DNA of 36,453 nucleotides from Syntrophorhabdaceae bacterium (GTDB lineage: Bacteria > Desulfobacterota > Syntrophorhabdia > Syntrophorhabdales > Syntrophorhabdaceae). The stretch lies in the NCBI GenBank assembly GCA_036504895.1, contig DASXUJ010000021.1, positions 1 to 36,453 of the forward strand, in the 5' to 3' direction. Position 1 is the first letter of the stretch; every line of letters starts with the position of its first letter. Shown here piece after piece: positions 1,731 through 31,735 of this stretch. A program made the translations under genes and the position numbers. A model generated the notes under the pieces. That model searched no databases and was not told where the DNA came from. It saw only the letters and a list, made by a program, of their open reading frames with translations.

Positions 1731-2006
1731 TTAATGCGTGGAAGCGTTCATGCGTGAATGCGGAAAAGCAAACGCATCTAAACTAATGAAAGAAGAGAGA
1801 CTAACGGCTGTGTTGTTGGTCTCTGCCTAGCTCGCACCGGGCACCATTGGGAAGATGGAGAGCGGAATAACAGAATGCGTTGTCATGTCTCTCCCCAGCT
1901 CGCACCGCGAGCGAGAAGGGGAGGCTCGGCGGGCTTTGCCCGTCGAGGGGGCGACGCAAGCCCCTAGAGTTGTGCGACGCAAGCCCCTATAGTTTGCGCA
2001 AGCCCA
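1731..2006 (+). repeat. Double-hairpin repeat, family 1, copy 1 (expanded copy)
   Basis: This is the longest copy of a repeat also found at 2996-3118 (same orientation) and 31557-31735 (opposite orientation). The outer part at 1735-1758 matches copy 2. About 125 nt of extra sequence follow, with a partial stem motif near 1829. The core then has stem 1 (1898-1903 with 1907-1912, loop ACC) and stem 2 (1925-1934 with 1938-1947, loop TTT). Downstream the unit GCGACGCAAGCCCC is repeated at 1951 and 1974, with a decayed third unit at 1996. The element ends within about 15 nt of the next gene's start codon. Confidence 0.8.
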
Positions 2007-2019
2007 ATTGATAGTGTAT

Positions 2020-2397
2020 ATGACACGACAGGATATCCATAAGGAGATTGTCAGAGAGTTCCGCGACTGCCTCGGGAACCGGAAGGATTTCGGGGCGGCG
2101 CGGAAGTATCTTGCTCCAACCTATATACGGCATAATCCGCCTTCGAATGAGGGGATCGAGGCGTTCGAGGAGTGTGCCGGCGCTTGCAAAAAAGACCCTC
2201 CCGATTTAACCAATGAAGTCATCCGTGTCTTAGCAGACGGGGATTACGTGGTCCTCCACGTCCATTCCTTCGAGCCTCCGGATATACATGTGGCAGTGGT
2301 GGAAATCTACCGCTTTGAAAACGGCTTTATCGCGGAGCAGTGGGATGTGGCTCAAATAATCCCTGCCACGTCATCCTGTCCGGACCGCATGTTCTGA
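2020..2397 (+). CDS. SnoaL-like (NTF2 fold) small protein
   Basis: The protein has about 125 residues and the pattern of SnoaL-like/NTF2 proteins. An N-terminal helix is followed by YIRHNPPSNEGIEAFEEC, close to the family pattern Y-I-x-H-N-P-x-x-x-x-G. The C-terminal strands include an acidic, aromatic segment (FIAEQWDVAQ) typical of the E-x-W-D element of this fold. The family includes small hydrolase- or isomerase-like enzymes acting on diverse ligands, so no substrate can be assigned. ATG at 2020 is preferred over in-frame TTG at 2008. No good ribosome-binding site precedes it, because a family-1 repeat ends just upstream, so its promoter and translation signals may have been disturbed. 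The gene is monocistronic and converges on the next gene. Confidence 0.7.
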   Translation: MTRQDIHKEIVREFRDCLGNRKDFGAARKYLAPTYIRHNPPSNEGIEAFEECAGACKKDPPDLTNEVIRVLADGDYVVLHVHSFEPPDIHVAVVEIYRFENGFIAEQWDVAQIIPATSSCPDRMF

Positions 2398-2415
2398 GCC
2401 GTCTGCATTGTTCAA

Positions 2416-2769
2416 TTATTTCGATTTCATAATCTGAAAAAAACGGGTGAAAAGACCCGGACCCGACTCCGGCGCGCAGGTCGTCTTCTTTTCGATCGTG
2501 CACACGAGAAAGGCCTCATATTCTTTCAAGGCTGCATCTTCGTACAGGGGTGCGAGAGCCGGAGTGATATTGTTCTTCCGCGAGAGCTGCCGCAGGATCT
2601 CAGCCGCGGTCTCCTTATCCGGGGCCCTCTGCTCCCTCGCAAGGGCAGAAAAAATCATATCGAGGCCGATGACGCTCACCTCTCTCCCATCGGCCAGAGA
2701 GAGATTCCGGAGCCACGTAATGGGCCCGCCCCCGCAGCACGTCTTCTTTTTGTTGGCGATCATGTACAC
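2416..2769 (-). CDS. Small conserved-looking CCGG protein, unknown function
   Basis: This protein has about 115-117 residues and begins with a basic stretch and a Cys-Cys-Gly-Gly motif (KKKTCCGGG). A region resembling a small alpha/beta domain follows, and there are further cysteines at FLVCTIEKKTTC. Vicinal and paired cysteines suggest metal binding or redox activity, but no family was recognised with confidence. Two starts are possible: GTG at 2769 and ATG at 2763. No Shine-Dalgarno sequence is visible, and a TATACT hexamer on the same strand at 2775-2780 lies only 5 nt before the GTG, which would fit a leaderless message. It converges on the SnoaL-like gene. Confidence 0.55.
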   Translation of the reverse strand: MYMIANKKKTCCGGGPITWLRNLSLADGREVSVIGLDMIFSALAREQRAPDKETAAEILRQLSRKNNITPALAPLYEDAALKEYEAFLVCTIEKKTTCAPESGPGLFTRFFQIMKSK

Positions 2770-2844
2770 GAATCAGTATAGCACACGGGGCCGGGCAGGG
2801 AAAATGGGGGGTTAAACGGCGGTAAAAAGCTCGTTACCAATAAA

Positions 2845-3155
2845 TTATGATTGTTTCTTGAGTTTCCTGAGAATAGCTTTAGCCAGATAGTCGTTGATCT
2901 CCTGATGTCTCGGAACAGGCTGAACCGCTTTTGAATCGGGATTTTGGTACCAGTCGTGTTTCCCACCATGGCGGACCAATATGCAGCCCATAGAAGGTAA
3001 AAGCGGTTTATGCGTAGAAGCGTTCATGCGTGAATGCGTGATGTAGCTCGCACCGCGAGCGAGAAGGGGAGGCTCGGCGGGCTTTTGCCCGTCGAGGGGG
3101 CGACGCAAGCCCCAATAATGGCAAGAAGCTCCCTTACCACATCGGCGCGCTTCAC
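2845..3155 (-). pseudogene. hicA: HicA-type mRNA interferase toxin, split by a repeat insertion
   Basis: HicA toxins are RNA-binding ribonucleases of about 60 residues. The N-terminus is read from GTG at 3155 as MKRADVVRELLAI, matching the family start MKR-x-D-L-I-x-x-L. The C-terminus is read in another frame at about 2991-2845, with GCILVRHGGKHDWY carrying the catalytic histidine region, then PVPRHQEINDYLAK. Between the two halves lies a family-1 repeat of about 125 bp. Reading on from the N-terminus hits TGA at 3024-3026. The GTG start overlaps the hicB stop by 4 nt (GTGA), the usual translationally coupled layout. Joined without the insert, the two pieces give a protein of normal length. 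The toxin is therefore almost certainly inactive. Confidence 0.85.
2996..3118 (+). repeat. Double-hairpin repeat, family 1, copy 2 (inside hicA)
   Basis: This copy has stem 1 at 3046-3051 with 3055-3060 (loop ACC) and stem 2 at 3073-3082 with 3087-3096 (loop TTTT), then GCGACGCAAGCCCC at 3100-3113. It lies in the same orientation as copy 1 and is nearly identical over the hairpin core and the GCGTTCATGCGTGAATGCG segment. Its ends fall inside the hicA reading frame, so the boundaries are known to within a few bases from where HicA homology stops and resumes. Confidence 0.85.
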
Positions 3156-3343
3156 GCTACCTGCAGCTCCCCTAGTTTCCGGATAGCCGGAATCTCGCCG
3201 CTGGTCATGTCTTTGTGAAGTTCAATGAGGTTCTCCTTAAGCTCATCCAAACTCATGCCTTGCGTCATGTACTCGGGATATTCTTCGATATAGCCCAGCC
3301 AATACTCTCCGTCCTGCCAATATACATATCGAATATTATACAT
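3152..3343 (-). CDS. hicB: HicB-family antitoxin
   Basis: This 63-residue protein starts MYNIRYVYWQDGEYWLGYIEEYPEY and continues with GMSLDELKENLIELH, the characteristic partial RNase-H-like fold of the HicB N-terminal domain (strand, W-x-G-Y, then S-L-E-E-L-x-x-N-L). Short HicB proteins of this size lack a C-terminal DNA-binding domain and neutralise HicA by direct binding. The start is supported by a strong ribosome-binding site (GAGGAGGAG) just upstream. It is the first gene of a hicB-hicA pair and its stop overlaps the hicA start by 4 nt. Because hicA is disrupted, this antitoxin is probably an orphan now. The frame itself appears intact. Confidence 0.85.
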   Translation of the reverse strand: MYNIRYVYWQDGEYWLGYIEEYPEYMTQGMSLDELKENLIELHKDMTSGEIPAIRKLGELQVA

Positions 3344-3449
3344 ATCTCCTCCTCGTTCACGACGGTAACTAATTATAACTCATTACCAATATCCATGGGA
3401 ATGTAATAACTCAAGATTCATTGAACCGGCTGAGGGGGCTGCGCTCCCG

Positions 3450-4826
3450 CTACCCCTTCCCTTCCGTCCCTGCCAGCACTTTTTGGCTGATGGTTTCGAG
3501 GCCTTCGTTTTTCACGCCCACGGGAAAGAGGGCGACGAGGATCATGCAGATAAAGCAGGGGATGGAGAAGACTATGAAGAATTGGCTGAAGCTGAATCCG
3601 GCCATCTGTACCGCCCCTCCCAGGAGAGGTCCCATGATCGAGCCCAACCTCCCTATGGCGTAGGCCCATCCGGCCCCGGTCGAGCGAAACCGGGTGGGAT
3701 AGATCTCGCCGGCGACCACGTGGAGCGCCGCGGGTACGCCGACCATGAAAATTCCTGTCGCTGCTCCGGCGATATAGAGGGCCGGGGCGGAGGTGACGAA
3801 GCCGAAGAGGATTACCGATATGCCTCCCACCAGGAAACTTACGCACAGGCCCAATTTTCGTCCGAACCTGTCCATGAGGCAGCCGAGAAGGACCCCTCCT
3901 ACCGCGGCCCCCATGGCCTGGACAATGCCGTAGCTGTAGCTCTTTACGAGAGACAGGCCCGTGTTGGCGAGAAGCGAGGGAAGCCATGTGGAGAGCCCGT
4001 AGAGGGCGAGCATATTAAAAAGATAGGTGCCCCATATAAGAAGCGTCATGGTCCGGAGGCCCGGCTTCAGGAGTTCCCTGAAGCCCACATTGGTGAGCGC
4101 CCCGGATTGGGCGAAGCTGTCATGGGTCCACGCGCAGGGCTCGAAGCATGCCGCCCTTTCTATGTTCTTAAGCTCGCCTATGGCCTCGGGGAAGCGTCTT
4201 TTCCCGGCGAGAAAGCGGACCGACTCGGGCAGGGCGGCCTTGATAAGGGGGAGAAGAAAGAGGGGCAGCACTCCGATGAGAAGCACCGCACGCCAGCCGA
4301 AACGGGGCACGAGCGCCATGGAGACGAGACCGGCAACGACCCATCCTATGGTAAAGCCGCCGCCCACGACCGTGAGAAACCGTGCCCTGATCTTCGAGGG
4401 CGCGAATTCACCGAGAAGGGTCACGGTAAGGGGGATTACCCCGCCGATGGCCAGGCCGGAAAGAAAGCGAAGCACGCAGAACGCCTTGAAATTGGGGGCG
4501 AAATAGGCGGCGCCGTTGAATACGGAAAAGGCCGCGACAATGAGAAGAATGGCATTCTTCCTCCCCAGGCGGTCGGAGACCATGCCGAGCCCGGCTGCGC
4601 CGATCATGAGTCCCAGGAAGCCGTAGGAGATCATGGCGCCCCCTTCGAGAGGCGTGAGATGCCACTCTTTCAAGGCAGGGGGGAGAATGTAGGCGATGAT
4701 CTGAGAGCTGTATCCTGCAAAGATGGTGATTAAGGTGCCGAGCACGAGAAGGCGCAGGTGGAACCGGCCGAATTTCAGGTGGTCGAGCCATTCGAAGGCG
4801 CAGACGGGGGAAGCCTTTTCTTGCAT
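3450..4826 (-). CDS. MFS transporter, aromatic acid:H+ symporter-like
   Basis: This 458-residue protein has 12 predicted membrane helices in two halves. The major facilitator signature is visible after helix 2 (GMVSDRLGRKN) and is repeated in the second half (GCLMDRFGRKLG). The segment GEFAPSKIRARF after helix 4 is typical of the sugar/aromatic-acid branches. The N-terminal start (FEWLDHLKFGRFHLRLL) resembles the AAHS group that includes PcaK and BenK, which take up benzoate-type acids with protons. Substrate assignment is inference. The start ATG at 4826 has a GAGG about 10 nt upstream. The gene is divergent from the chemotaxis receptor, and no aromatic-degradation genes are adjacent. Confidence 0.85.
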   Translation of the reverse strand: MQEKASPVCAFEWLDHLKFGRFHLRLLVLGTLITIFAGYSSQIIAYILPPALKEWHLTPLEGGAMISYGFLGLMIGAAGLGMVSDRLGRKNAILLIVAAFSVFNGAAYFAPNFKAFCVLRFLSGLAIGGVIPLTVTLLGEFAPSKIRARFLTVVGGGFTIGWVVAGLVSMALVPRFGWRAVLLIGVLPLFLLPLIKAALPESVRFLAGKRRFPEAIGELKNIERAACFEPCAWTHDSFAQSGALTNVGFRELLKPGLRTMTLLIWGTYLFNMLALYGLSTWLPSLLANTGLSLVKSYSYGIVQAMGAAVGGVLLGCLMDRFGRKLGLCVSFLVGGISVILFGFVTSAPALYIAGAATGIFMVGVPAALHVVAGEIYPTRFRSTGAGWAYAIGRLGSIMGPLLGGAVQMAGFSFSQFFIVFSIPCFICMILVALFPVGVKNEGLETISQKVLAGTEGKG

Positions 4827-5264
4827 ACGGGATTAACCTCATTGTGCGTCATTTTGGAGAATTTTGCAAGCCTTTTTGTATACGGAGCAGCCCTTGTTGG
4901 CTTTCCTTCCAATGCCTTTCTTGAGTGGCATCAGTCGCGAAAAGTGAGGCGATTACTCGTCCCATGGTCTGGAAACGTGGGTGCCCACGAATAAACCCAT
5001 CCCTTAGCCCGCTGCACTTAATGATAATATTTCGCCTTTGCCCCTAAAAGGGCTTAAGCAAACGCGCGGAGCGCCGAAGAACAAAACATACGGCACAAGT
5101 AATGGGATACTGAATTTATTTTCCCTGTTATTGCGCATCGAGACCGTCACCTCGAGGTCTTCATTCGCAGACCGTACACGCTGACGTAGACACCGTGAGC
5201 CGGCCCACCATGATTTTTATCTCGCCAATGGCCACGAAATCGTATTTTACGAGGAGGCGCATCA
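4827..5264. other. Divergent intergenic region
   Basis: This 438-nt gap lies between the divergent transporter and chemotaxis-receptor genes and must hold both promoters. Consensus sigma-70 or sigma-28 sites were looked for and no convincing pair was found. An AT-rich patch near 5020-5035 could be a -10 element. No small gene is supported. Confidence 0.4.
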
Positions 5265-6899
5265 ATGAAACTTTTCACGGACGTAAAAATCGGCAAAAGG
5301 CTTGCAATCGGATTCGGCATCGCCCTCTCCCTGACTGCGGTTAACCTTATTATCGGGATAATCCTTCTGGGCGGTATTAGTGGCAATCTGGACCAGATCG
5401 TGGCTCATGACAATGTCAAGATAAAGTATGCAAACGATATACGGTCGGCCCTCGCGGACATCACCGCCCTTTCGGGCGAGATAGCGAGGGCGGACAACGA
5501 GAAGGATCGACTCGACGCGAAAAAGAAGGTAGACGAGCTGCGGCCTAAATATAAGAACGCAATGGAAGAGCTTGCGCGACTGGAGACTCACCCGGAAGGA
5601 AGGAGCCTCATCGCGAGCCTCGGCGAAGAGGTATCGAAGGGGAAGGAGGCCAACAATAAAGTGATCGAGTTGGGCCTCGCGGGTAACACGAAGGAGGCGA
5701 CCGCGAGTTACTCGGAAGCCAAAAAGACCTTGAAACAATATCTCGACGGGGCCGATGCAGTGATACTGTATAACGAAAATACCACACGGCAGGCATATCA
5801 AACCGCCAAAAAAAGGGCATCGACGGGGCGCATCGCCTTCATCATACTGGGGGCATTTACCATGCTCGTCGGCGTGTGGCTCTCTCGTGCCATTACCCGG
5901 AGCATCACCATCCCGATTTTGCGTTCTTCGGAACATATAGATCTTATGGCAAAGGGTGATTTTTCCATATCCGTATCCGGTCATGCGTTAAAAAGAGGTG
6001 ATGAAATGGGCCTCTTCGCTAAATCCATGGAAGCGATGAACAAGAACATAGCAAAAATACTGATGGAGATGAAATCTTCCGCCGCGAGTGTGGCGTCCGC
6101 GAGCGCGCAGCTCAGCGCCTCGGCCGGGACGCTCTCGGGTGGGGCGGGGCACCAGGTAGACATGGCGACCCAGGTCGCGACCGCTTCCACCCAGATGAAT
6201 CAGGCCACCGAGGATATCGCGAAAAATTCGAACGGCATTGCCCAATCCGCGGGAGAAGCGGTGAAGATCGCCAGGGGAGGGCAGGACATTGTGGAGAAGG
6301 CAATCCGGGAGGTGAACCTGATCGCCGAAACCGTGGACACGGTCTCACAATTCGTAAGGGAACTGGGTCGTGAATCGGACAGGATCGGGAATATCGTCAC
6401 CACCATCAATGAGATTGCAGATCAAACCAACCTCCTGGCCCTGAACGCAGCAATCGAGGCGGCGCGGGCGGGAGAGCACGGAAGGGGATTCGCGGTAGTT
6501 GCCGACGAGGTGAAGAAGCTCGCGGAAAGGACCACCGCCTCCACGACGGAGATAGGAACCATGATTACCACCGTGAAGAACGGCGTGGAGAAGACCGTAG
6601 ACTCCATGGACCAGACAAAGCGAAATGTCGAATCCGGGGTTGAATTTTCGTCCCAGGCACAGGCCGCGCTCAAAGACATCATCACCAGCATCGACAGCCT
6701 CTATGATGGAATTCAGCAGACCGCCAGTTCCATAGAAGAAATGAGCGCAACCACGGCGGAGATCACCGAGGACATAAACAAAATATCGGATGTGACAAAG
6801 GAAACGCTCTCCTCCTCGGAGGACATATCGGGAGCAGCAACAGGGCTATCAGGTCTCGCCGAGTATTTGAAAGAGACGGTGCGGATGTTCAAAGTGTGA
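5265..6899 (+). CDS. Methyl-accepting chemotaxis protein
   Basis: The protein has 544 residues in the classical order: a short cytoplasmic start, membrane helix 1 (about residues 12-36), a periplasmic helical sensor of about 150 residues rich in Glu, Lys and Ala (four-helix-bundle type), membrane helix 2 (about 189-211), a HAMP linker, and a long coiled-coil signalling domain. The highly conserved hairpin tip reads [20 protein letters not shown], then [17 protein letters not shown], near residues 383-425. It is expected to relay ligand signals to CheA/CheW. No C-terminal CheR-binding pentapeptide is evident. The ATG at 5265 follows GAGGAGG. The gene ends just before a perfect palindromic terminator. 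The ligand is unknown; the neighbouring aromatic-acid-type carrier is only a weak hint. Confidence 0.95.
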
Positions 6900-6920
6900 T
6901 GCCTTTCAATAACCCCTAAT

Positions 6921-6962
6921 AAAAGGGAGCCTCCGGATTCGCGAATCCGGAGGCTCCCTTTT
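6921..6962. terminator. Perfect 42-bp palindromic bidirectional terminator
   Basis: Arms 6921-6941 and 6942-6962 are perfectly complementary with no spacer. The palindrome begins with AAAA and ends with TTTT, so an RNA from either strand forms a GC-rich hairpin followed by U residues. It sits between the convergent chemotaxis-receptor and lipoprotein genes and serves both. Confidence 0.9.
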
Positions 6963-7009
6963 ATAATTCAGTGGTCGGTCGGGCTAAGTTAACCCGGCCG
7001 CAGTCGGGC

Positions 7010-7627: not shown

Positions 7628-7653
7628 TTCCTTCTTCTCCTTTTTTTAAAAAA

Positions 7654-8455: not shown

Positions 8456-8622
8456 AAAAGGGGTTTGAACTGAGACTGAGGACTTACCATTGCCGCCCTT
8501 TTCTCTTTGCATTTTACGGCCGCCTTAGTTTAAAATAATCAGACTCCCCGGACATTCTCGACGGTCGGGCCGGTTTTGAATACGGTTAGGGGCGAAATGC
8601 GTAAAAAATACGGAATGGGGTT

Positions 8623-9774: not shown

Positions 9775-9775
9775 T

Positions 9776-20755: not shown

Positions 20756-21447
20756 TATTTATTAAGTGAAAATGCCTCATTTTGGCCTCTGCATATATAC
20801 GGAAATTTAGAAATCGGACGCGCAATATCGATTGAAATGACGAAGCACGAGCGTCCCTCTGCCATCCTATATTTCTATGGGGGCGCGCGCATGCCGGCAA
20901 CGCCGTCACCGGAGCCTTCCGCTGCAGGGTCCCCCAGCCCCTACGCAAGTCGCTCCAGAAGTAGCCCCCTTAAGCCCACCCGTCAGGGCGAGTGAAGTTG
21001 TTTCAAAACTTTCTCCAAAACCCGAACCAGTGGCGGTTTATCCAACGAAAGATATGCAGCGTTGCCCTACTATGAGGATGAATTGCCTATTATAAACAGA
21101 CGAAAAGAGGGGAGCAAAGACCCCATTTAAATAATGATGCCGTCGTAATGCCCTTATATGATTGAAAAGTGCCTCGAATTTAGATGAAAGCACTCGGTTT
21201 TACTGGTGGCTCCGGCATTGATGTGCGGCATACCTGATTTCTCGTGACATTCGACAGTATAAGCGAACACATCATGGTTGACCTTTCATAAAGTATGGAG
21301 CATAATAGATTTCGATTGGGAGACAAGAAACCTCCCGGCAGTAAGCCCAGCCGATAAGAGAAGAGAGTTCTCTCCCGCTCTTTTGAATGTTCAGAATTTA
21401 ATAATTCGATCGACCTACTTGACCGCCTTAAGGAGAAGAGGAATAAG
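20756..21447. other. Long intergenic region with a family-2 repeat
   Basis: 20885-21005 is a copy of the family-2 repeat, listed separately. The remaining 440 nt have no supported gene. A short hairpin (GGGAG at about 21320 with CTCCC) lies upstream of the next gene, but it does not match a known riboswitch that could be recognised here. Confidence 0.5.
20885..21005 (+). repeat. Family-2 intergenic repeat, copy C
   Basis: The sequence is very similar to 23657-23775 in the same orientation, including GCCGTCACCGG, CCTTCCGCTGCAGG and AGCCCCCTTAAGCCCACC. It lacks the left part of copy A. Confidence 0.8.
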
Positions 21448-23400
21448 ATGACAAAGAAATACACTCATTCTGAAAGATTCAGAGGATTCAGAGGATTTTA
21501 TAAATATGGGACCAATCTGACCTTGCCTGCGCTTTTCGTTGTGCTGGTTTTATCAGTGTTCGCTCATCAATGTTATGGTTTCTCAATGGTCGCCTCCCCC
21601 AGGATTTCCGCCTCCCCCGCCTCTCTCAACTTCGGGAATGTAAAATCCGGCGCCACATCTTCAGTTAAAACGATCACGGTGAAAAACACGGGCACCTCGG
21701 ACCTTGTGATAGGAAGCATTGACATCACAGGGACCAACGCCTCCGAATTCAGCCAAACAAACGATTGCACAATGATTACGGCAGGTGCTTCATGCGTCGT
21801 CAGCGGAACATTTGCGCCCACAACCCCCTTTGGAAAAAAGAGTGCGGTAGTGAGTATTATCTCTAACGACCCCGTGAAGCCGAATTTAAATGTGAAGGTC
21901 TCGGGTAGCGCTCCTCCTCCCAGGGTTTCTGCCTCCCCTGTGTCCCTCAGTTTCGGTAGTGTAAGACCTGGAGCCACATCTTCACTTAAGACGATCACGG
22001 TGAAAAACACGGGCACCTCCGATCTTGTGATAGGAAGCATCGACATCACAGGGACCAACGCCTCCGAATTCAGCCAAACAAACAATTGCACGAACATTAC
22101 GGCAGGTGCTTCATGCGTCGTCAGCGGAACATTTGCGCCCACACCTCCCTCCGGCAATAAGAGCGCAATAGTGAGTATTACCTCTAACGACCCTGCGAAG
22201 CTCACCGTAAACGTGAAGCTTTCGGGAACTACTGCAGTGGTCCCCAGGGACGCGGGGGGCGTATTACTGACGAGCGGTCGGTTCGGAGCTCTCATGGTCG
22301 GCGGCAGGGCCGGTGAGATGCTTCTCCCTATGGTTGACCGGGATGGGTCGGGCAACGCCACAAGGATAACCTGAGCACTGTATATGAATAATGATACCGG
22401 CAACAGCGCCGTGGTGTACCTTGGCGAAGACGGCAGGCCGACGAAGACCGTCATGGGCGACTTCATCCTGCTCTTTTCCAACTGGAGCGCGAATGGCACA
22501 ACCGTTAATATTGCAAAAATCTACACACCCACCAATTACATTGAGGTGTTCAAGGGGGTGAATGTAGCCACGAACATCGCTGCAAATAACGCCAATCGCG
22601 AAGTTTCGTCATACGTTGCGCCGATGACCTGTTTACCGGTATGCGGCAATGACACTCAAACTCTGGCGGAGCTCCTCAAGTTGTCCGGGTTGCTCATATC
22701 GGACGGTCTTTGCGTGGTCGCCATTCCGGCTTCTCTTGCGACAATGGCCCTTCCCTGCGCCGGGGCAGTCGTGGCCACGGCATCGTTCCTGATGGGCGAT
22801 GAAGCATGGCTTGGAATTCAAGGGATGGATGCTGGTTTTCTGGCTATGGATGCCGCTGAATGCCTTGGTGCAAACGCGTTGTCCTGCGTGTCACTCTTCT
22901 CGGGTGTGGGCTCGCAGATATTAGATGTATATGGAAAAGAACTGGATGACAACAGCACTCTCGTGGGTGTAGCCTTCGCTGCGCTCACAGATCCAAACCG
23001 ACCTGGCGGTGTGGTCCAGCCGGGAGGTGGACTCCCCGTGGTACCATCAGGCGAATATGAGTGCACTCCGGGTGGCGCAATGCATTATGCGCCATGCCTC
23101 GTCGGCGGCGTCAGAGAGTGCCGGAGCGACTACACATGGAGCCCCTGTGCGCCTACGCCTGTGTGTGGAAACGGGAGATGCGAGAGCGGAGAAACGTCGT
23201 TCAACTGCCCAGGTGATTGCGCCAACCGCACATGCCCCAATAGAGACAGCACCTGTTGCACGATGAGCGGCGGCAGCCAGATCCAGGTGATCAAAGTTCC
23301 CACAAGTTGCAGGCACTGCCCCAACGACAACACGACATATGCAGGCTACGGAGAGAATGGTTACTATGTGTGCGATTGCGACGATTGTAGAAGCTGGTAA
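21448..23400 (+). pseudogene. Surface protein with tandem Ig-like repeats, interrupted by TGA
   Basis: A 308-residue frame (21448-22374) and a 338-residue frame (22384-23400) lie in the same reading phase, separated only by TGA at 22372-22374 and three codons. The first part has a signal-like hydrophobic segment and two 107-residue ASPM/SPD-2/Hydin-type Ig repeats (SASPASLNFGNV, then NTGTSDLVIGSIDITGTNAS). The second continues with a beta-rich segment, two hydrophobic patches and a Cys-rich tail with CGNGRCESGETSFNCPGDC, a motif of secreted proteins. The second frame has no ribosome-binding site, so this is most simply one gene with a nonsense mutation. Two separate genes, or recoding of TGA, are less likely. 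AAGGAGAAGAGG precedes ATG 21448. Confidence 0.65.
21598..22239 (+). repeat. Two direct 321-bp coding repeats
   Basis: 21598-21918 and 21919-22239 encode successive Ig-like domains. From about 21679 and 22000 onward the two copies are almost identical at the DNA level, including third codon positions, which points to recent duplication or gene conversion. Confidence 0.85.
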
Positions 23401-23493
23401 GATTAGGGTCGCGGATGGAGAGGTCCATAACCACATCACTACTGCGGCCTAACCTTTAGATTTGCGAAAGGGCGAGATTGTTGGGGGTAGGAC

Positions 23494-23775
23494 GGCTGGG
23501 CTTAAGGGGGCTACTCCTTCAGCTCCGGCTGCTTAAGGGACTGGACCCAAGGCGTTCCCAGGCCCCTCGCGCTCAGCGCGCAGTTTATTATTAACGTGTG
23601 GCACGAGGGTTGTTCGCGAACCGATTGGTTCTGCCGGGCCTGATCCACCTATCCGAACGCGCGTGCCGGCTTGCCGTCACCGGAACCTTCCGCTGCAGGC
23701 TTCCCCAGCCCCTACGCAGTCGCTCCAGAAGCAGCCCCCTTAAGCCCACCCGCCAGGGCGAGTTAAGGTGTTTTC
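23494..23775 (+). repeat. Family-2 repeat, copy A, with terminal inverted repeats
   Basis: GGCTGGGCTTAAGGGGGCT at 23494-23512 (arm extends to 23515) pairs with 23730-23750 with two mismatches, giving a unit of about 257 bp like a small non-autonomous element. Its middle (about 23520-23695) is homologous to the inverse complement of 25590-25780, and its right part to copy C. It fills the 506-nt gap between the broken surface-protein gene and the RsbW-GNAT gene; no gene is seen there. Confidence 0.8.
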
Positions 23776-25427: not shown

Positions 25428-25589
25428 CCCTCCTGTTCTGTGTGAGTCTATTATGCTTCAATCCCTGCTGGTTTTCAAGTTGAAACATCGTGCAATGCGA
25501 GAGAAGTAGGGAGTAGGGGGACGCTCTGGAAATGTTGACCTTTGAGACATAAGATGCCCATCATGGCGATCATACTTGATTTCCTCCCG

Positions 25590-25780
25590 CAATTGCAGGG
25601 TTCCGGTGACGGCGTAGCCGGCACGCGCGCCGGATAGTTGGATGAGACCCCTCCAAACCAACTGGTTTTCGGACGACCACTATTCCTTACCTCAAAAACA
25701 AACTTCGCACTGAGCGCGAGGAGACCGGGAGCGTCTTGGGTCCAGACCCGGAGCAGCCGGAGCGGAAGGAATAATCCCCG
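25590..25780 (-). repeat. Family-2 repeat, copy B (inverted)
   Basis: The inverse complement aligns with 23520-23695 over about 180 bp, with shared blocks CTCCGGCTGCT, CTGGACCCAAG, CTCGCGCTCAG, GCGCGTGCCGGC and GCCGTCACCGGAACC. Together with copy A it forms long inverted repeats around the RsbW-GNAT gene. The rest of the 540-nt gap upstream of that gene shows no supported coding sequence. Confidence 0.8.
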
Positions 25781-25892
25781 CAGCCAGACCATCCCGTTCC
25801 CGACATACTCACCCCGCTTCAGCATTTTTTAGGGGTATATGGCTGCCATGGCTCTTCCCCTGCTGCGGGATGCCTTAGGATGATTACAAAAC

Positions 25893-25928
25893 AAAAGGCC
25901 CGAAACCGTCACCGGTCTCAGGCCTTTA
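25893..25928 (-). terminator. Terminator of rpoD
   Basis: On the minus strand AAAGGCCTGAGACCGG pairs with the following GGTTTCGGGCCTTT arm around a short loop, then T-rich sequence. It lies 40 nt after the rpoD stop. Confidence 0.85.
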
Positions 25929-25967
25929 TTAAGCTGTATTGTCGCGCCCTTTGGGGCGCGGGGTATT

Positions 25968-27479
25968 CTATTCCAGGAAGCTTTCCAGTCTCTTTCTTCT
26001 TGATGGATGTTTCAACTTTCTTAGGGCTTTTGCCTCGATCTGCCGGATTCTCTCTCTTGTGAGGCCGAAGACTTCTCCCACCTCTTCCAGGGTGTAATCC
26101 GTCTTTTCGCCTATGCCGAGTCTCATCCTTATCACCTTTTCCTCTCTCGGGGTGAGGGTCGAAAGGACCTTGTAGATCTCTTCCTTAAGAGAGATGCCTA
26201 CCAGCTCGGTAAAGGGCGACGGGGATTTCGGGTCGGCGATGAAGTCTCCCAGCTTCGACTCGTCGTCGCCTATGGGGGTCTCTATGGAGATCGGCTCGTT
26301 CGAGACCTTCATGATCTTGCGTACTTTTTCCAAGGGCAGGCCTGCCTTGCCGGAGATCTCTTCGAGGTTCGGCTCCCTTCCCAGCTCCTGGAAGAGGGAG
26401 ATGGTCACCTTGGTAATCTTGTTCATGGTTTCGAGGACGTGGACGGGCACCCTGATCGTGCGGGCGTAGTCTGCGATGGCCCTCGTGATGGCCTGCCGGA
26501 TCCACCATGTGGAGTAGGTGGAGAACTTGTAGCCTTTCTGGTAATCGTATTTCTCCGCTGCCTTCATGAGACCCATGTTGCCTTCCTGAATGAGATCGAG
26601 GAAGGAAAGGCCCCTGTTCAGGTACTTTTTGGCGATATTGATGACCAGTCTCAGGTTTGCCTGGATCAGCCTGTTTTTCACCACCTTCAGGCCGTTTTCT
26701 ATATCGCTTATCTGGCCGAAAGTCTTTCTAATCGCCACTCCTTCATGCTCGTCCAGGGTCTTCAGGTGTCTCGCCGTCTTGCGCACGATTTCTTCGAGGA
26801 CCTTCTTGTTCAGGTTGAGGTTCGCAAGGGATTCTTCGATTTTTGCATCGAGGGCTTTCACCTTCTTTTCGTTCTGCTTTTTCGCCAGCTCGTCCGTACC
26901 GGGGGCTTGGCCCATAAACTCCCTTTTCTTGTCGAAGCTCGTCTTTATGGTATTGATCAGGAAAAGGGTCCTTTTCTTATACTTCTCCTCGTCCTTTTTC
27001 GTATAATTCATCTCATCGATATTCTTGATCACATCCACGATGGCCACGCCGTCCTTCTTGATGAGCGACGCAAGCTCCTGAAGCTCGTGGATGGCCTGGG
27101 GAAGCCCGAATAGGAGATTTCTTACCTTTTTCTCCCCTTCCTCGATCTTCTTTGCGATCAGGTACTCTTCCTCGGAGGTGAGCAGAGAAACGCGGCCGAT
27201 ATCCTTGAGATATGCCCAGATGATGTTGTCGGTCCGCTCGGAAGGGAACCTCTCGATCTCTCCCCATTCCTGGGGCTCTTCAGGGGTCTCGATCTTCTCT
27301 TTTATGGTCTCTACGATATCTATGTTGGATTCGGAAAGGAAATCGAATATGTCTTCTATGTCCTCGGGAGAAAATATATTCTGAGGAAGATAGTCGTTAA
27401 TTTCGTCGGGGGTAAGGTATCCCTTTTCCATACCCATATCCACAAGATGTTTGATTTCTGTATAATTTTTTATACTCAT
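25968..27479 (-). CDS. rpoD: Primary sigma factor (RpoD/sigma-70)
   Basis: This 503-residue protein has a region 1.1-like N-terminus ([20 protein letters not shown]), region 1.2 ([18 protein letters not shown]), and a compact non-conserved insert. Region 2 reads [20 protein letters not shown], then [21 protein letters not shown] and [17 protein letters not shown]. Region 3 follows, and region 4 has the helix-turn-helix [20 protein letters not shown] that reads -35 elements. It is somewhat shorter than E. coli RpoD because the non-conserved region is reduced. It directs housekeeping transcription, consistent with the many TTGACA/TATAAT-like promoters in this window. It is monocistronic with its own promoter and terminator; dnaG is not adjacent here. 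Confidence 0.97.
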
Positions 27480-27564
27480 CTCTTATCTCCAAATGTTAAA
27501 AAAGCCTCTGCCAAAAACGCAAAAAAGGCTCTTTTCGGACTTCTCTTTCCGAAAAACGTGAATG

Positions 27565-27593
27565 AATATAGGTACTATTTTCTAAGTCGTCAA
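27565..27593 (-). promoter_or_regulatory. Promoter of rpoD
   Basis: On the minus strand TTGACG (27588-27593) and TATATT (27565-27570) are 17 nt apart, about 85 nt before the start codon. A weak GCCT/AGGC hairpin lies in the leader at about 27500-27535. Confidence 0.7.
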
Positions 27594-27757
27594 TGACCTG
27601 CGTGATCGGAGATACCCGCCGCGGTCGGTGTGAGAGACTCATATGCTTATTACCTTATAACAGATTTCCGGTTCGAAGTCAACACTTCCCCTTACCCGCT
27701 CCGACCTGAAAACAGGACTGCGGACCTGAGGATCTAAGAATAAGAACCCGAATAAGA

Positions 27758-27786
27758 TTGACTACCACGACAATAACATATATAAG
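27758..27786 (+). promoter_or_regulatory. Promoter of the universal stress gene
   Basis: TTGACT (27758-27763) and TATAAG (27781-27786) are 17 nt apart, and the AAGGAGG ribosome-binding site follows at 27805-27811. The 338-nt gap from rpoD therefore holds two divergent promoters and no gene. Confidence 0.7.
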
Positions 27787-27817
27787 AAACCAAAGTCACG
27801 AAAAAAGGAGGTTCCCC

Positions 27818-28273
27818 ATGTTTACGAAAATTCTATATCCCGTGGATTTTTCCCCCTATGCGGAAGAGATTCTCGAATATGCCGTGGCCATCGCCGGCCG
27901 TTTTAACTCGGAGCTCCACATGATCCACGTAATTCCGAACCTCAACTATTTTACGCCCTATGAGTCCTTCCTTACGCCTGAGAATATGGTTTCCATTGAG
28001 CGCAATATTGAAAGCGAAGTGGAGAGGGATTTCGGCACCCTCACGGAAAAGCTTACGATCCCGGTGAAGAAGGTGACGCGGACCGGGGTAACATTTGTGG
28101 AGATTATCGAATATGTGAAAGAAGCGGGCATCGATCTCGTGGTAATGGGAACCCATGGCCGAAGCGGTATAGAGCATATACTTATAGGCAGTGTGGCGGA
28201 AAAGGTTGTGCGGAAAGCCCCCTGCCCCGTGCTCACCGTGAGACCGAGGGACAGAAAATTTGCCATGCTTTAG
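27818..28273 (+). CDS. Universal stress protein, UspA family
   Basis: This 151-residue single-domain protein starts MFTKILYPVDFSPYAEEIL. It has the ATP-binding signature GTHGRSGIEHILIGSVAEKV near residues 110-130 (G-x2-G-x9-G-[ST]) and ends CPVLTVRPRD, as in ATP-binding Usp proteins. Such proteins aid survival under starvation, oxidative or energy stress. ATG 27818 is chosen because AAGGAGG lies 6 nt upstream; a longer frame has an unrelated N-terminus. It is divergent from rpoD and convergent with the Rrf2 gene. Confidence 0.93.
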   Translation: MFTKILYPVDFSPYAEEILEYAVAIAGRFNSELHMIHVIPNLNYFTPYESFLTPENMVSIERNIESEVERDFGTLTEKLTIPVKKVTRTGVTFVEIIEYVKEAGIDLVVMGTHGRSGIEHILIGSVAEKVVRKAPCPVLTVRPRDRKFAML

Positions 28274-28341
28274 AATCTTAATTAATCCTCAAAACCTTCA
28301 GCATGCCGGGTGCCTGCCCGTTCACAGCGGACCTCTCCGCG

Positions 28342-28779
28342 TTATACGGGAATTCCCCGTTCACGCGCCTCCTCGCATATGTTGTTGATGGTGACGGAGT
28401 CGAAGTAGTCCATCAGCCGGTGGGAGGCTTCGCTCCAGACGTCCGATACCACACATTTCCCATACCGGTCGCACGCTTTTGGTCCTCGTTTTTCACCGGA
28501 GCAGAAGACGAGCTGGATATTCTTTCCGTCCACCGCCCGCACCACGTCGCCTATCGTGATCTCCTCGGGCCGCCTTGAGAGATAGTAACCCCCCGTAGGG
28601 CCCCGTACACTTTTGATGATGCCGGCTTTTTTGAGCTTCTGAAAAATCTGCTCGATATATCGTGGGGAAATGCCCTGGCGCTCCGAAATGCATCGCACCT
28701 GGGCGGGGCTGCCTGCCGAATTATAGGCAATGTCACAGAGAGACCTCAGTCCGTACCGGATTTGCGTGGAAATTTTCAC
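28342..28779 (-). CDS. Rrf2-family regulator with three cysteines
   Basis: This 145-residue protein has the winged helix-turn-helix of Rrf2 (STQIRYGLRSLCDIAYNS, then ISERQGISPRYIEQIFQKLKKAGII and the wing VRGPTGGYYLSR). Three cysteines follow in FCSGEKRGPKACDRYGKC, spaced C-x9-C-x5-C, where IscR has C-x5-C-x5-C. An Fe-S or other redox-sensing cofactor is likely. Isc/Suf genes are not adjacent, so its targets are unknown; the divergent L,D-transpeptidase gene is 400 nt away. The first ATG gives the family-standard N-terminus MKISTQIRYGL. Confidence 0.9.
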   Translation of the reverse strand: MKISTQIRYGLRSLCDIAYNSAGSPAQVRCISERQGISPRYIEQIFQKLKKAGIIKSVRGPTGGYYLSRRPEEITIGDVVRAVDGKNIQLVFCSGEKRGPKACDRYGKCVVSDVWSEASHRLMDYFDSVTINNICEEARERGIPV

Positions 28780-29185
28780 GTTACGCCCCTTTTCTATAGA
28801 ATTTTACTCACCTGCGACCGCGCCGGTATCCATGGAAGGAAGAAACATCCCTTCCCGGAACTATCCCTGACTCGGAAGCCGCGTATCTGCCTGTTTCTCA
28901 AGGGGCGCATTTATCCCGCCTATTCCCCCCGCAGTTTTCGCGATCACGGGTCCGACCTTTCGCTCTCCCTCGTCGGGCCGGATTTGGGGGATCCTCTATG
29001 CCCCGATAGATATCTGCTGAATGAACGGGTGCAGGCGCCAAAGATTCTCTCCTGAGAGGTCATGGATCAGCCTGCTTTAGGTTTATAACATAATCTGTCA
29101 AGTACAAAAACAGTTATTTTATTCCCATACTGCAACTTCTCTTGAAAAATCGACCCGATTCGTATTAACATGAAATGCGGTCTCT
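28780..29185. other. Divergent intergenic region
   Basis: This 406-nt gap lies between the Rrf2 and L,D-transpeptidase genes. A 97-codon opening exists on the plus strand but has no ribosome-binding site or recognisable domain and is not called. The last 120 nt are AT-rich, with TTGAAA and TATTAA 15 nt apart at about 29142-29168 as a weak promoter candidate. Confidence 0.4.
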
Positions 29186-30235
29186 ATGAGAATCCTTCTC
29201 TACTTGCCCTTACTGTTCTTTGCTACCGTCGTTTCGGGGGCCGATCTCATTGTCGGCGGTGAAACCCGCTACACGGTTCAGAAAGGAGAGCGCCTTGAAC
29301 TCATCGGCGCCCGGCTCGGGGTGTTCTGGAAGAATATCGCAAGGGAGAACGGTCTCGACCCCGAGGCAAAAGTTTCTCCCGGCCAGCAGATCAAGGTCAC
29401 TACGCGGAAGATTGTGCCCCGTGTGGTGGAAGACGGGATAATCATCAATATCGCGGACAGGACCCTTTACCTCTTTAAGAAGGGACAGCTCTCTACTTTC
29501 CCCGTGGGCCTGGGCCTTCCCCTTGAAAACGATTTCGGCGACTGGCGCACCCCCATCGGCAAATTCACGATCGTCGGCAAACGGAAAAACCCTATATGGT
29601 ATGTCCCCGAGTCGATCCAGATGGAGATGGCCTTCAACGGCAAAACCGTTGAGGAGGCCGTCCCGCCTGGACCGAAAAACCCTCTGGGCAGGTATGCCAT
29701 AATTACCTCCATACCCGGCGTTCTTATTCACGAGACCATCAGGCCCACGAGCGTCTACCGCTACCAGAGCCATGGGTGCATAAGGATGCTGCCGGAGAGT
29801 ATGGAAAAACTCTTTCCTGAGATTCAAAAAGGCGCCAAAGGGGAGCTTATCTACGAACCGGTGAAGGTCGCGGTGGGTGATGACGGCAAGACCTACCTTG
29901 AAGTGAGGACGGATACCTACAGGAAAGTGGTCTCCATGCGGGACCACGCATGGAAGCGCATAGAGGAGAAAGGACTCGCCGGAACGGTCGATAAAGACCG
30001 GGTGGAGCAGGTAATTAAGGAAAAATCAGGCGTCGCTCATAACGTATCAACCGGTTCCAGGGTCGCCGAGGCCGGCCAGGACGTGCCGAAAAAGGAATTT
30101 CTTCAGAAGGTCTTCGACCTTTTCACCCCGGGATCGAAAAAAGCGGGTCCTTCCGGCGTTCAGGGGCCGGGGGGTCGAGGTATTCTCATCCAGAAACCGC
30201 TATCAAGGGTGAGCTTCTTCTTTTCCGCAGTATAA
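29186..30235 (+). CDS. LysM-YkuD L,D-transpeptidase
   Basis: This 349-residue exported protein has a signal peptide (residues 1-18). A LysM-like module follows (TRYTVQKGERLELIGARLGV, then SPGQQIKV), and the YkuD catalytic domain spans about 85-225. The active site reads SHGCIRM near residue 195, with the upstream histidine in LIHETIR. The enzyme would form 3-3 cross-links in peptidoglycan or attach proteins to it. The C-terminal 100 residues are charged and low-complexity. No ribosome-binding site is obvious before ATG 29186. Its last 76 bp overlap the 3' end of the opposite-strand amidohydrolase gene. Confidence 0.92.
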   Translation: MRILLYLPLLFFATVVSGADLIVGGETRYTVQKGERLELIGARLGVFWKNIARENGLDPEAKVSPGQQIKVTTRKIVPRVVEDGIIINIADRTLYLFKKGQLSTFPVGLGLPLENDFGDWRTPIGKFTIVGKRKNPIWYVPESIQMEMAFNGKTVEEAVPPGPKNPLGRYAIITSIPGVLIHETIRPTSVYRYQSHGCIRMLPESMEKLFPEIQKGAKGELIYEPVKVAVGDDGKTYLEVRTDTYRKVVSMRDHAWKRIEEKGLAGTVDKDRVEQVIKEKSGVAHNVSTGSRVAEAGQDVPKKEFLQKVFDLFTPGSKKAGPSGVQGPGGRGILIQKPLSRVSFFFSAV

Positions 30236-31053
30236 TCGGATTTCAATATATTGATATAAAGCTCGGGAGGGCCGACTTTCGGCAAAGAAACGACCCATGT
30301 GGCAAGGGTGCATACTTTTCTCGCAGGCCCGCATTCCTGACGGATCGCACCGATCCTTCCCGCGCTTCTGTCTTCGCTCAGGGAGATGAATCCGTCGAGG
30401 TCAAAAGAAGCGGAGCCGTTCGCCAGAAGCCGGTTGATCCGTTTGAGCCGGTCCCTGCTTTTTCTCGTGGGCCGCTCGTTCGCCTTCTTCAGACTCTCGT
30501 CCGTATAATGGTTCGCATGGGTGAGCACGCCGTTCGCGGTGACCTTGATCGAAGTTTTTCCTCCCGGCGCCACCTCGATGAGAGCGGCCTTGGTGGAATC
30601 GGCTACCAGGTAAAAGGCGGGGTGACTTGTCGCAAAGAGCGTCCCCTCGGCGACCAGGGCATCCACGGTCGCAAAAGAGGTAAGGAGCCTCTCCGTAAGG
30701 TCCTCTTTTGCGACCAGCCTCTTCTCGTCGGGAAGGCTTGCCGCAGATGCGTTTACCACCGTGAGCCCTTTTTCGTTGATACCCGCCACCACATATCCAT
30801 CCCGTTCAGGATCGAAAAGAGCGGCAAAGGCAAGACCCTTTTCCCGGCAGACCGCCCGGAATTCGGTAACAAGACCCATGGAGTTATCCCGGTTTTTCGC
30901 CACGACCGTCCCTCCCTTGCCGTTCACTTTTGTGCCCGTCGCCGCCCAGATGGTGCAGCCCAGGGAAGGACGGGGCATAAGGGCAAGAAGAATCGAGGCA
31001 GCCAATGCGAGGGAACCGCAGGTCCGAGCGGGAGAGCCCATCACCGGCCTCAA
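30160..31053 (-). CDS. C45-type Ntn amidohydrolase/acyltransferase, exported
   Basis: This 297-residue protein has a cleavable signal (LALAASILLALMPRPSLG) followed directly by Cys33 in GCTIWAATG. In the acyl-CoA:6-aminopenicillanate acyltransferase-like group the residue exposed after processing is the nucleophile, which fits here. VAKNRDNSMG and the later GVLTHANHY match conserved substrate-pocket motifs. The likely role is hydrolysis of a linear amide in the periplasm; peptidoglycan- or signal-derived amides are possible. Its start overlaps the preceding deoxyribosyltransferase stop by 4 nt. Its 3' end overlaps the L,D-transpeptidase gene for 76 bp in antisense. The length fits the family. 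Confidence 0.8.
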   Translation of the reverse strand: MRPVMGSPARTCGSLALAASILLALMPRPSLGCTIWAATGTKVNGKGGTVVAKNRDNSMGLVTEFRAVCREKGLAFAALFDPERDGYVVAGINEKGLTVVNASAASLPDEKRLVAKEDLTERLLTSFATVDALVAEGTLFATSHPAFYLVADSTKAALIEVAPGGKTSIKVTANGVLTHANHYTDESLKKANERPTRKSRDRLKRINRLLANGSASFDLDGFISLSEDRSAGRIGAIRQECGPARKVCTLATWVVSLPKVGPPELYINILKSDYTAEKKKLTLDSGFWMRIPRPPGP

Positions 31054-31529
31054 TTATTTGCCGGCGAAGGAGGCAGCCGGTCTTTCGACAAAGAAAGCCA
31101 TTCAAGGGTGCGTACGAGCATTTCCATCCTCCCGGCCTCAAGCACATGATCGAAACGCTCCTTCGCGGCCCCCAGGAGCATGGCATTGGCCAAATCGCAG
31201 GAACCGGCCGAAATGAGAATCACAGGCATATTCATACAGTGGGCATAACCCGCCTCAAACGCGGTCCCCGTATCATCATCGTCAACCAGGGCCATCACCA
31301 CATCGCATTCCTCCAGGAGGCCGATGCAGGAGTCCTTTATAGTCTCGCTCATCGCAACTTTGGCCTCCGGATCGTGCTCCACGTTCGGGCTATGGTCAAA
31401 GGGGTCCATCACGGAAATATCCCCCTCACCACTCCGCGCCATAAGGGCTTCCCGAAGCTTCGCGAGGAACTCGATCTTGAAAGATTCCTGTTCGGGGGTA
31501 AAGCAGGGGTGGGCGAAATAGACGCGCAT
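31050..31529 (-). CDS. Nucleoside 2-deoxyribosyltransferase-like protein
   Basis: This 159-residue protein fits the nucleoside 2-deoxyribosyltransferase superfamily. It starts MRVYFAHPCFTPEQ, has the DPFDHSP loop, and then CDVVMALVDDDDTGTAFEAGYA, where the Glu is the usual nucleophile and the Gly-Thr-A-x-E-A-G-Y pattern is diagnostic. Classical members exchange bases between deoxynucleosides, while relatives hydrolyse nucleotides or NAD-like compounds. Linkage to an exported amidohydrolase is unusual. TATAAT on the same strand (31536-31541) lies 6 nt before the ATG and no ribosome-binding site is seen, so the mRNA may be leaderless. Confidence 0.85.
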   Translation of the reverse strand: MRVYFAHPCFTPEQESFKIEFLAKLREALMARSGEGDISVMDPFDHSPNVEHDPEAKVAMSETIKDSCIGLLEECDVVMALVDDDDTGTAFEAGYAHCMNMPVILISAGSCDLANAMLLGAAKERFDHVLEAGRMEMLVRTLEWLSLSKDRLPPSPANN

Positions 31530-31556
31530 CTATACATTATACAATAAAATGGAAGT

Positions 31557-31735
31557 TGCTGCTATTGACGGGGCTCACGTCGCACAATTGATTGGGGCTC
31601 AGGTCGCACAATCTATTGGGGCTCACGTCGCCCCCTCGGTCGGCAAAAGCCGACCGAGCCTCCCCCCGCTTAAGGCGCCTACTGTTGGTCTCGCCCGCGG
31701 TGCGGGCTACATCACGCGGGAAAGCTGGGATTATT
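31557..31735 (-). repeat. Double-hairpin repeat, family 1, copy 3 (inverted)
   Basis: Read on the minus strand, this has the same order as copies 1 and 2. Stem 1 is GCCCGC-ACC-GCGGGC (31693-31707) and stem 2 is 31635-31644/31649-31658 with loop TTTT. The tail is three 24-bp units starting at 31570, 31594 and 31618. The stems differ from the other copies at paired positions while pairing is kept. Confidence 0.8.

What the first reader, a model, noticed from the sequence alone, without database searches (positions are those of the whole stretch)
1898..31707. Three-copy intergenic repeat folding into two hairpins with compensatory changes
The copies at 1898-1947, 3046-3096 and, inverted, 31635-31707 share the order stem 1 (loop ACC), GGGGAGG, stem 2 (loop TTT/TTTT), GGGGGCGACG. 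Stem 1 is GCTCGC/GCGAGC in two copies and GCCCGC/GCGGGC in the third. Stem 2 changes at three or more paired positions while pairing is kept. Paired substitutions imply that the folded form is selected, as in REP/REPIN-type elements or a small RNA family.
Basis: seen in the sequence. Interest (0 to 1): 0.75.

Follow-up and report, generated by a model that had tools for sequence, protein, structure and literature searches.

The report
Mobile two-hairpin repeat across bacterial phyla
The three look-alike spacers are copies of an about 80-letter hairpin-forming DNA repeat found, sometimes over a hundred times per genome, in distantly related groundwater and sediment bacteria; some copies sit inside working genes without breaking the reading frame, some are flanked by a second copy of a gene's end, and no enzyme that moves it could be recognised.

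Summary
The window's genome holds at least 78 copies; the element also occurs in MAGs labelled Nitrospirae, Syntrophorhabdales and other deltaproteobacteria, Acidobacteria, Bdellovibrionales, Chitinivibrionia and Peribacteria, 2-133 copies in 12 genomes counted, but patchily (3 of 118 sampled species in one phylum). Both stems covary strongly; the centre of stem 1 is either two standard pairs (46 of 104) or a tandem G.A pair (46 of 104). No Rfam match was found. It behaves as a non-autonomous mobile repeat, not a small-RNA family: patchy copy number, in-frame inserts of 26-27 residues in PurN, a MiaB-like protein and PriA, a sharp 3' end. It is not a RAYT-driven REP/REPIN: 0 of 36 Y1-transposase loci carry it nearby, two copy-rich relatives have no Y1 match, near pairs are head-to-tail (17 of 17). 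Outside the window's genome it is mostly sense-oriented (114 against 18). New: 33 of 377 copies have long direct repeats (2.0 expected), several being the duplicated 3' end of the upstream gene or of a tRNA; in 12 protein genes the two copies differ by 23 synonymous and 2 non-synonymous codons. Closest kin: Rickettsia palindromic elements and CGTC REPs.

The parts
1893..1972 (+). copy 1, whole core: H1, GAGAA GGGGAGG, H2, H3, AT-rich tail
   Evidence: covariance model match 1893-1970, 90.4 bits, E 7.9e-25 in the window; this model was built with own-genome copies, copy 1 among them
1898..1912 (+). H1 of copy 1: GCTCGC-ACC-GCGAGC
   Evidence: sequence; covariation on 104 copies; not the minimum-energy pairing of this copy alone
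1925..1947 (+). H2 of copy 1: CTCGGCGGGC-TTT-GCCCGTCGAG
   Evidence: sequence; covariation; fold
1948..1964 (+). H3 of copy 1: GGGGC-GACGCAA-GCCCC, predicted; nearly invariant, so no covariation test possible
   Evidence: RNAfold in 6 of 6 folded sense-strand copies
1973..2016 (+). two extra tail units (GCGACGCAAGCCCC... and a shorter one) behind copy 1
   Evidence: (D4); extent read by eye
3041..3121 (+). copy 2, whole core
   Evidence: match 3041-3119, 91.7 bits, E 3.4e-25
3046..3060 (+). H1 of copy 2
3073..3096 (+). H2 of copy 2: CTCGGCGGGC-TTTT-GCCCGTCGAG
2993..3038 (+). leader of copy 2, 91% identical to 1717-1762 upstream of copy 1
   Evidence: D7
31610..31712 (-). copy 3, type-B core with insert
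   Evidence: match 31612-31687, 62.2 bits, E 1.4e-16, the part with H1 lying beyond the insert
31693..31707 (-). H1 of copy 3: GCCCGC-ACC-GCGGGC
   Evidence: not the minimum-energy pairing of this copy alone
31666..31688 (-). type-B insert CCAACAGTAGGCGCCTTAAGCGG, seen in several other copies of this genome
31635..31658 (-). H2 of copy 3: CTCGGTCGGC-TTTT-GCCGACCGAG
31560..31609 (-). two extra tail units behind copy 3
   Evidence: (weak match 31564-31593); extent read by eye

Best explanation
A non-autonomous mobile DNA repeat. Its unit is a core of about 78-84 nt: H1, a GAGAR/GTTGAG linker, GGGGAGG, H2, then GGGGCGACGYRAGCCCC (probably a third hairpin) and an AT-rich end TWTAATWG. It folds back on itself in single-stranded DNA or RNA; some protein that handles the folded form, not identified here, inserts it with a sharp 3' end. 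Survivors are copies in short intergenic gaps, usually sense to the flanking genes, and copies in frame inside genes at sites that tolerate 26-27 extra residues. Some copies carry behind them a long duplicate of the neighbouring gene's 3' end, so that the gene stays whole; such duplicates would also let ordinary homologous recombination carry the element with the gene end into other strains. SHOWN: structure, copy number, patchiness, in-frame copies in genes, the clustering of direct-repeat starts at the element's 3' end, sense bias outside the own genome, mostly synonymous divergence of the duplicated gene ends, Y1 transposase not detected in some copy-rich genomes and reverse transcriptase not detected in others. 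INFERRED: the act of insertion, the enzyme, a single-stranded intermediate, spread by recombination.
For: At least 78 copies in the window's genome, 61 and 1 in two congeners; 32 of 60 genomes positive, own included; 0 of 16 from other families of the phylum; 3 of 118 sampled species in the phylum of G060, G060 included; 2-133 copies in 12 genomes of other groups. Covariation. In-frame inserts against solved homologues: PurN, unaligned gap of 32 residues against 5 in 3auf; MiaB-like, 60 against 34 in 7mjv (the N-terminal match there is weak); PriA, 35 against 8 in 4nl4; an iron-sulfur oxidoreductase, 35 against 1 in 9bov. A copy between the two helicase domains of a UvrD-type protein. Direct repeats: score 20 or more in 33 of 377 copies against 2.0 expected from mismatched pairs; of the 41 scoring 16 or more, 27 start from 4 nt before to 8 nt after the model end. 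Tandem cores at 77 nt period in G194. Clustering of neighbour genes gave no recurring transposase-like family (read by eye, clusters in at least 3 loci).
Against: No empty site was seen at DNA level: the two congeners are only 67-78% identical in the gene matches. Intragenic inserts of 26-27 residues leave no room for a long duplication, so one insertion mode does not explain both classes. 344 of 377 copies show no direct repeat of score 20, and 12 of the 33 that do have it at another offset, partly array neighbours. Every genome here is a MAG or unnamed assembly; none was shown to be an isolate. The own genome shows no sense bias (9 against 14). The enzyme is unknown, and the two strongest no-Y1 genomes do have reverse transcriptases (G005 1, G037 3); only G039 (15 copies, 84% complete) has neither.
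Confidence: 0.77

Rival explanations
1. GTAG REP/REPIN mobilised by a RAYT (Y1 HUH transposase).
For: Hairpins; GTAG directly before stem 1 in 31 of 61 own-genome copies; 7 Y1_Tnp matches in the own genome and matches in 31 of 44 genomes searched, own included, among them most copy-rich ones.
Against: 0 of 36 held Y1 loci have a copy in their flanks; one has its own perfect 27-nt inverted ends. G005 (99% complete, 77 copies) and G037 (97%, 67 copies) have no Y1_Tnp match. Near pairs in the own genome are head-to-tail 17 of 17. GTAG in only 14 of 316 copies elsewhere.
Confidence: 0.09
2. A cis-acting RNA element (5' leader or intercistronic stabiliser/translation element) kept by selection, with copies spread by duplication.
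For: Outside the own genome, between genes of one direction it is sense 114 times and antisense 18 times, p 3e-18; 87 of 155 sense downstream genes start within 30 nt of the model end. Strong covariation.
Against: Neighbour genes are mostly unrelated; in-frame intragenic copies; 0 to at least 78 copies between relatives; no bias in the own genome. The bias can also arise from purging of antisense copies, whose CCUCCCC would face Shine-Dalgarno sequences (inference).
Confidence: 0.12
3. Retrotransposon-like (SINE-like) element inserted by target-primed reverse transcription.
For: Sharp 3' end, variable 5' extension and long variable direct repeats. G005 and G037, copy-rich without Y1, have PF00078 matches.
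Against: No PF00078 match in the own genome (completeness 100), G002 or G018, all copy-rich. Intragenic copies lack the repeats.
Confidence: 0.06
4. The direct repeats are metagenome assembly chimaeras of strain variants, or local tandem duplications, and say nothing about insertion.
For: The sources are MAGs; synonymous differences look like strain variation; several repeats are parts of arrays (L011, L185, L419).
Against: Similar 3' junction in unrelated assemblies, tRNA ends included; four of 12 gene-end repeats have no codon difference; plain tandem duplication predicts mostly non-synonymous drift in the displaced copy, seen in 2 of 25 differing codons.
Confidence: 0.15

Closest known systems
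Rickettsia palindromic elements (RPE)
   Same: Short palindromic repeats, intergenic and in frame inside unrelated genes (PMC10969869, passages seen; PMC3733652, parts 1-3 of 8 and passages seen).
   Different: Core of about 80 nt with two covarying hairpins and conserved linkers, found under several phylum labels, sense bias, gene-end repeats; RPEs are described there as about 150 bp and from Rickettsia. No sequence comparison was made.
CGTC-tagged REPs (Di Nocera 2013, PMC3733652)
   Same: Authors found no dedicated transposase; several phyla; intragenic copies, many of the paper's in replication and repair genes, as here in PriA and two UvrD-type helicases.
   Different: CGTC REPs have an 8-9 bp stem almost always beginning with A/T pairs next to CGTC and are mostly head-to-head pairs; here CGTC on the minus strand is separated from the H2 stem and near pairs in the own genome are head-to-tail.
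GTAG REPs and REPINs with RAYTs
   Same: Many intergenic hairpins; GTAG before stem 1 in half of the own-genome copies.
   Different: No RAYT locus with the element, no inverted near pairs in the own genome, tag rare elsewhere, two different hairpins per unit.
Integrative elements that enter gene or tRNA 3' ends (recalled knowledge, no call)
   Same: A duplicated, mostly synonymously differing 3' end of a conserved gene or tRNA flanks the insert and the gene stays whole.
   Different: The insert is about 80-200 nt, shows no gene, and each copy has a different target gene.

Membership tests
GTAG REP / REPIN | GTAG (or close) directly 5' of the palindrome | tested here: inconclusive
   31 of 61 own-genome copies, 14 of 316 elsewhere, where CCAG is commonest with 119
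GTAG REP / REPIN | pairs in inverted orientation | tested here: not met
   own genome only: 17 of 17 neighbours under 250 nt head-to-tail, one opposite pair at 907 nt; 69 places typed, fragments left out
GTAG REP / REPIN | RAYT gene in the genome, flanked by the repeat | tested here: not met
   0 of 36 held Y1 loci; G005 and G037 without Y1_Tnp match
CGTC REP | CGTC next to an 8-9 bp stem starting with A/T pairs | tested here: not met
   consensus of 104 copies read against the description in PMC3733652
RPE-type palindromic element | in-frame insertion in unrelated protein genes | tested here: met
RPE-type palindromic element | sequence relationship to an RPE family | not tested
   no RPE sequences were compared
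Rfam RNA family | match above a curated threshold | tested here: not met
   0 in the window; in 9 loci holding copies only a neighbouring tRNA and a sub-threshold PhrS match
MITE | terminal inverted repeats and a fixed short target duplication | tested here: not met
   ends YAGC... and ...TAATWG are not inverted repeats, by eye on the profiles; the 30 repeats with a start near the 3' end are 14-114 nt long
integrative element at gene ends | uses a site-specific recombinase | not testable with these tools
   the unit shows no gene; host recombinases were not examined

The most novel reading that the evidence does not exclude
A hitherto undescribed class of coding-free mini-element that enters the 3' ends of conserved genes and tRNAs and arrives with a replacement gene end, so that each insertion leaves a working, synonymously recoded end plus the displaced old end; it moves between species by recombination at that duplicated end, and spreads within genomes as a folded single strand handled by host enzymes.
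Probability: 0.28. Interest if true: 0.86.

Novelty: new variant of a known kind. Interest (0 to 1): 0.67.

Why it matters
In 2013 the authors who defined CGTC REPs left open what moves them (PMC3733652). This family offers hundreds of copies under several phylum labels, a sharp 3' end, in-frame inserts in enzymes such as PurN and PriA, and duplicated gene ends that may record how copies arrive, so the insertion mechanism becomes testable. The covariance model also gives annotators a way to stop calling these stretches genes or gene extensions, and to correct start and end calls of neighbouring genes.

Tried and rejected
RAYT association: PF01797 in the own genome and in 44 genomes, own included; flanks of all 36 loci held scanned: no locus with the element. 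Reverse transcriptase: PF00078 in the same 44: absent from several copy-rich genomes, present in the two copy-rich ones that lack Y1; so neither enzyme is common to all, but exclusion of both rests on G039 alone. Neighbour-gene clustering for an autonomous parent: common paralogous families only. Viral contigs (exact pattern), plasmids and phages (82-nt copy 2): no match. Rfam: none. DNA-level empty sites in congeners: too diverged. Orthologous copies in G060/G061/G062: PurN gave the one convincing shared site; too few to measure compensation in place. Sigma-70 promoter in the tail (TATAAT): no -35 at the right place, read by eye, not pursued. Literature: the searches listed nothing that I could recognise as this repeat; open-licence papers only, and titles and abstract starts only were seen except for the papers named. 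RepRanger paper PMC12306157: outline with abstract only. PMC8266576 and PMC10969869: passages. PMC3733652: parts 1-3 of 8 and passages.

Rows dropped: of 110 references selected, six were left out of alignment A1 by hand, four unusually long, two (L087, L146:388-466) of ordinary length; type-B copies were excluded. In one search the printed total 23/18 includes one row whose second copy reads N and whose frame is the element array itself; without it 23/2 (12 genes). The 12 genes were picked by me: those of the 30 repeats starting near the 3' end that have a sense reading frame through a readable repeat, 11 genes, plus L011, whose repeat starts 23 nt downstream.

Full report
CHECK. The genome carries 55 exact matches of the linker pattern and none in the reversed control, 58 blastn places, fragments included, and at least 78 covariance-model matches, 78 being the number of candidates scored. 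The finding is real.

STRUCTURE. From 104 copies (28 of the own genome, 76 of other genomes) the consensus is YAGC-H1-GC(GAGAR or GTTGAG)-GGGGAGG-H2-GGGGCGACGYRAGCCCC-TWTAATWG. The linker letters inside the search pattern look invariant partly because the scan demanded them. H1 and H2 covary: 87.4% of cells paired, 12 of 16 pairs with changes on both sides (shuffles 9.5, 19 of 500 as high), 185 doubly changed cells against 40.3, covariation score 0.327 against 0.118, 0 of 500 as high. The two central pairs of H1 are both standard in 46 of 104 copies and a tandem G.A/A.G in another 46; 12 copies are otherwise. Tandem G.A pairs are a known stable motif in RNA and DNA (recalled), so these exceptions may also speak for folding. 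Of six sense-strand copies folded singly as RNA, H2 and a third hairpin GGGGC-GACGYRA-GCCCC appear in all six, H1 as drawn in three; L068 folds no better than 26 of 200 shuffles. The third hairpin hardly varies, so covariation cannot test it. Conservation at the 3' end stops about eight bases behind CCCC.

DISTRIBUTION. Of 60 genomes near the window's, own included, 32 are positive; copies range from 0 to at least 78, with 78, 61 and 1 in three species of the same genus and none in 16 genomes of other families of the phylum. Contig coordinates show that G031 is Syntrophorhabdus sp. PtaU1.Bin058 (same family) and G002 (same genus) the MAG labelled Syntrophus sp. SW.010 (compare), so the window's genome belongs with the Syntrophorhabdaceae (kinship from the tool, name from record titles). 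Model counts in 12 of these genomes run from 2 to 133 (150 candidates scored each). In the phylum of G060 3 of 118 sampled species, G060 included, are positive. Genomes with two or three copies (Acidobacteria, Chitinivibrionia, Peribacteria) are MAGs and could owe them to contaminating contigs. Viral contigs, plasmids and phages: none.

INSIDE GENES. Several copies lie in frame within real genes. Against solved structures the extra length is 27 residues in PurN, 26 in a MiaB-like methylthiotransferase, 27 in PriA (antisense frame), 34 in an iron-sulfur flavoprotein; 26-27 residues are 78-81 bases, the core. A UvrD-type helicase carries one copy between its N- and C-terminal helicase domains and, read by eye, a second one downstream. 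PurN carries a copy at the same place in G060 and G061, whose proteins are 74% identical; their H2 is identical, so this copy probably predates the split. Many other in-ORF cases are spurious reading frames or N-terminal over-calls and are not counted as intragenic.

CONTEXT. Leaving out the own genome, gaps between genes of one direction hold the element sense 114 times and antisense 18 times (p 3e-18); the downstream gene is sense in 155 of 204, the upstream gene in 145 of 204; 87 of 155 sense downstream genes start within 30 nt of the model end (simple longest-ORF gene calls; 9 edge copies and 103 in-ORF copies, 61 sense and 42 antisense, set aside; in G063 the in-ORF copies are mostly antisense, 18 of 20). 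The own genome shows none of this (9 sense, 14 antisense). The copies are not independent: three Nitrospirota MAGs supply many of them.

DIRECT REPEATS. For each of 377 copies the 300 nt upstream were compared with about 114 nt downstream. A repeat scoring 20 or more is found in 33, against 2.0 in mismatched pairs. Of 41 scoring 16 or more, 27 start between 4 nt before and 8 nt behind the model end, 14 elsewhere, several of these being array neighbours. The 30 near-end repeats scoring 14 or more have their first copy 0 to 259 nt upstream of H1. Targets include the 3' end of a tRNA-Pro (L388) and, by eye, further tRNA ends (L395; L122, L133, L296, L098), and the 3' ends of protein genes: L7/L12, S19, MraZ, PlsX, a flagellar rod protein, ribose-phosphate pyrophosphokinase, YceG and others. 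In 12 such genes I compared the two ends codon by codon from the start of the repeat to the stop codon: of 171 codons 25 differ, 23 synonymously, where 20.6% is expected by chance (P 3e-14), and the differences lie towards the gene's end (p 1e-4). L149 alone supplies nine of the 25. Four of the 12 have no difference. A displaced gene end that had drifted would show mostly non-synonymous changes, so both ends were probably functional until brought together. The simplest reading is import of a gene end plus element by homologous recombination through an already duplicated end, which also explains the polarity; integrase-like entry at gene ends is the bolder reading.

MECHANISM. G005 and G037 are copy-rich without a Y1_Tnp match, and none of 36 Y1 loci held has the element in its flanks. 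The own genome, G002 and G018 are copy-rich without a PF00078 match, though G005 and G037 have some; G039 (15 copies, 84% complete) has neither. Most copy-rich genomes do have Y1 genes, so a trans-acting Y1 enzyme is made unlikely, not excluded. No recurring neighbour gene suggests an autonomous parent. I favour a non-autonomous repeat moved by host or unrecognised enzymes acting on the folded strand. In this it resembles CGTC REPs, for which the authors found no dedicated transposase, and RPEs, which enter genes in frame; Di Nocera et al. also report many intragenic REPs in replication and repair genes (PMC3733652), matched here by PriA and two UvrD-type helicases.

VERDICT. The family is a new variant of short palindromic mobile repeats. 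The gene-end repeats are the surprising part and the least secure, since the genomes are MAGs.

Noticed in passing
window 1973-2016 and 31560-31609 (minus): Extra tail units GCGACGYRAGCCCC plus AT-rich spacer behind some copies, with differing spacers; not easily explained by simple tandem duplication.
   Followed up: partly
window 31666-31688 (minus); also L007, L008, L017, L027, L224: Type-B copies carry an insert CCAACAGTAGGCGCC-TTWA-GGCGR between H1 and GGGGAGG that can form a further hairpin (by eye).
   Followed up: no
L001, L015, L043, L020, L229 and other own-genome loci, about 90 nt upstream of H1: Many own-genome copies share degenerate leaders with AAAAAGY and GCGTGATGTAGC, perhaps a lineage-specific 5' structured module; several Nitrospirota copies instead have a hairpin of the type AGATACCCACGGGC..GCCCGTGGGTATCT.
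   Followed up: partly
L185 3287-3381 and 7135-7230: Syntrophaceae bog_1155 copies have a longer, branched-looking H2.
   Followed up: no
L065 860-886 and 1903-1929: One RAYT-like gene of the own genome is flanked by its own perfect 27-nt inverted repeats, unrelated to this element.
   Followed up: no
window 21598-21897 and 21919-22218: Two 300-nt direct repeats, 86% identical, within open reading frames.
   Followed up: no
window 20885-21003, 23491-23773, 25599-25779: Further dispersed GC-rich repeats in direct and inverted arrangement (D5, D6, I1, I5, I6, I11), perhaps another repeat family of this genome.
   Followed up: no
window 1828-1845: TAGCTCGCACCGGGCACC looks like a truncated left end of an older copy of the element.
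   Followed up: no
G194 contig C48 59050-59508; G196 contig C8 507-751: Head-to-tail arrays of bare cores with a period of 77-84 nt.
   Followed up: partly
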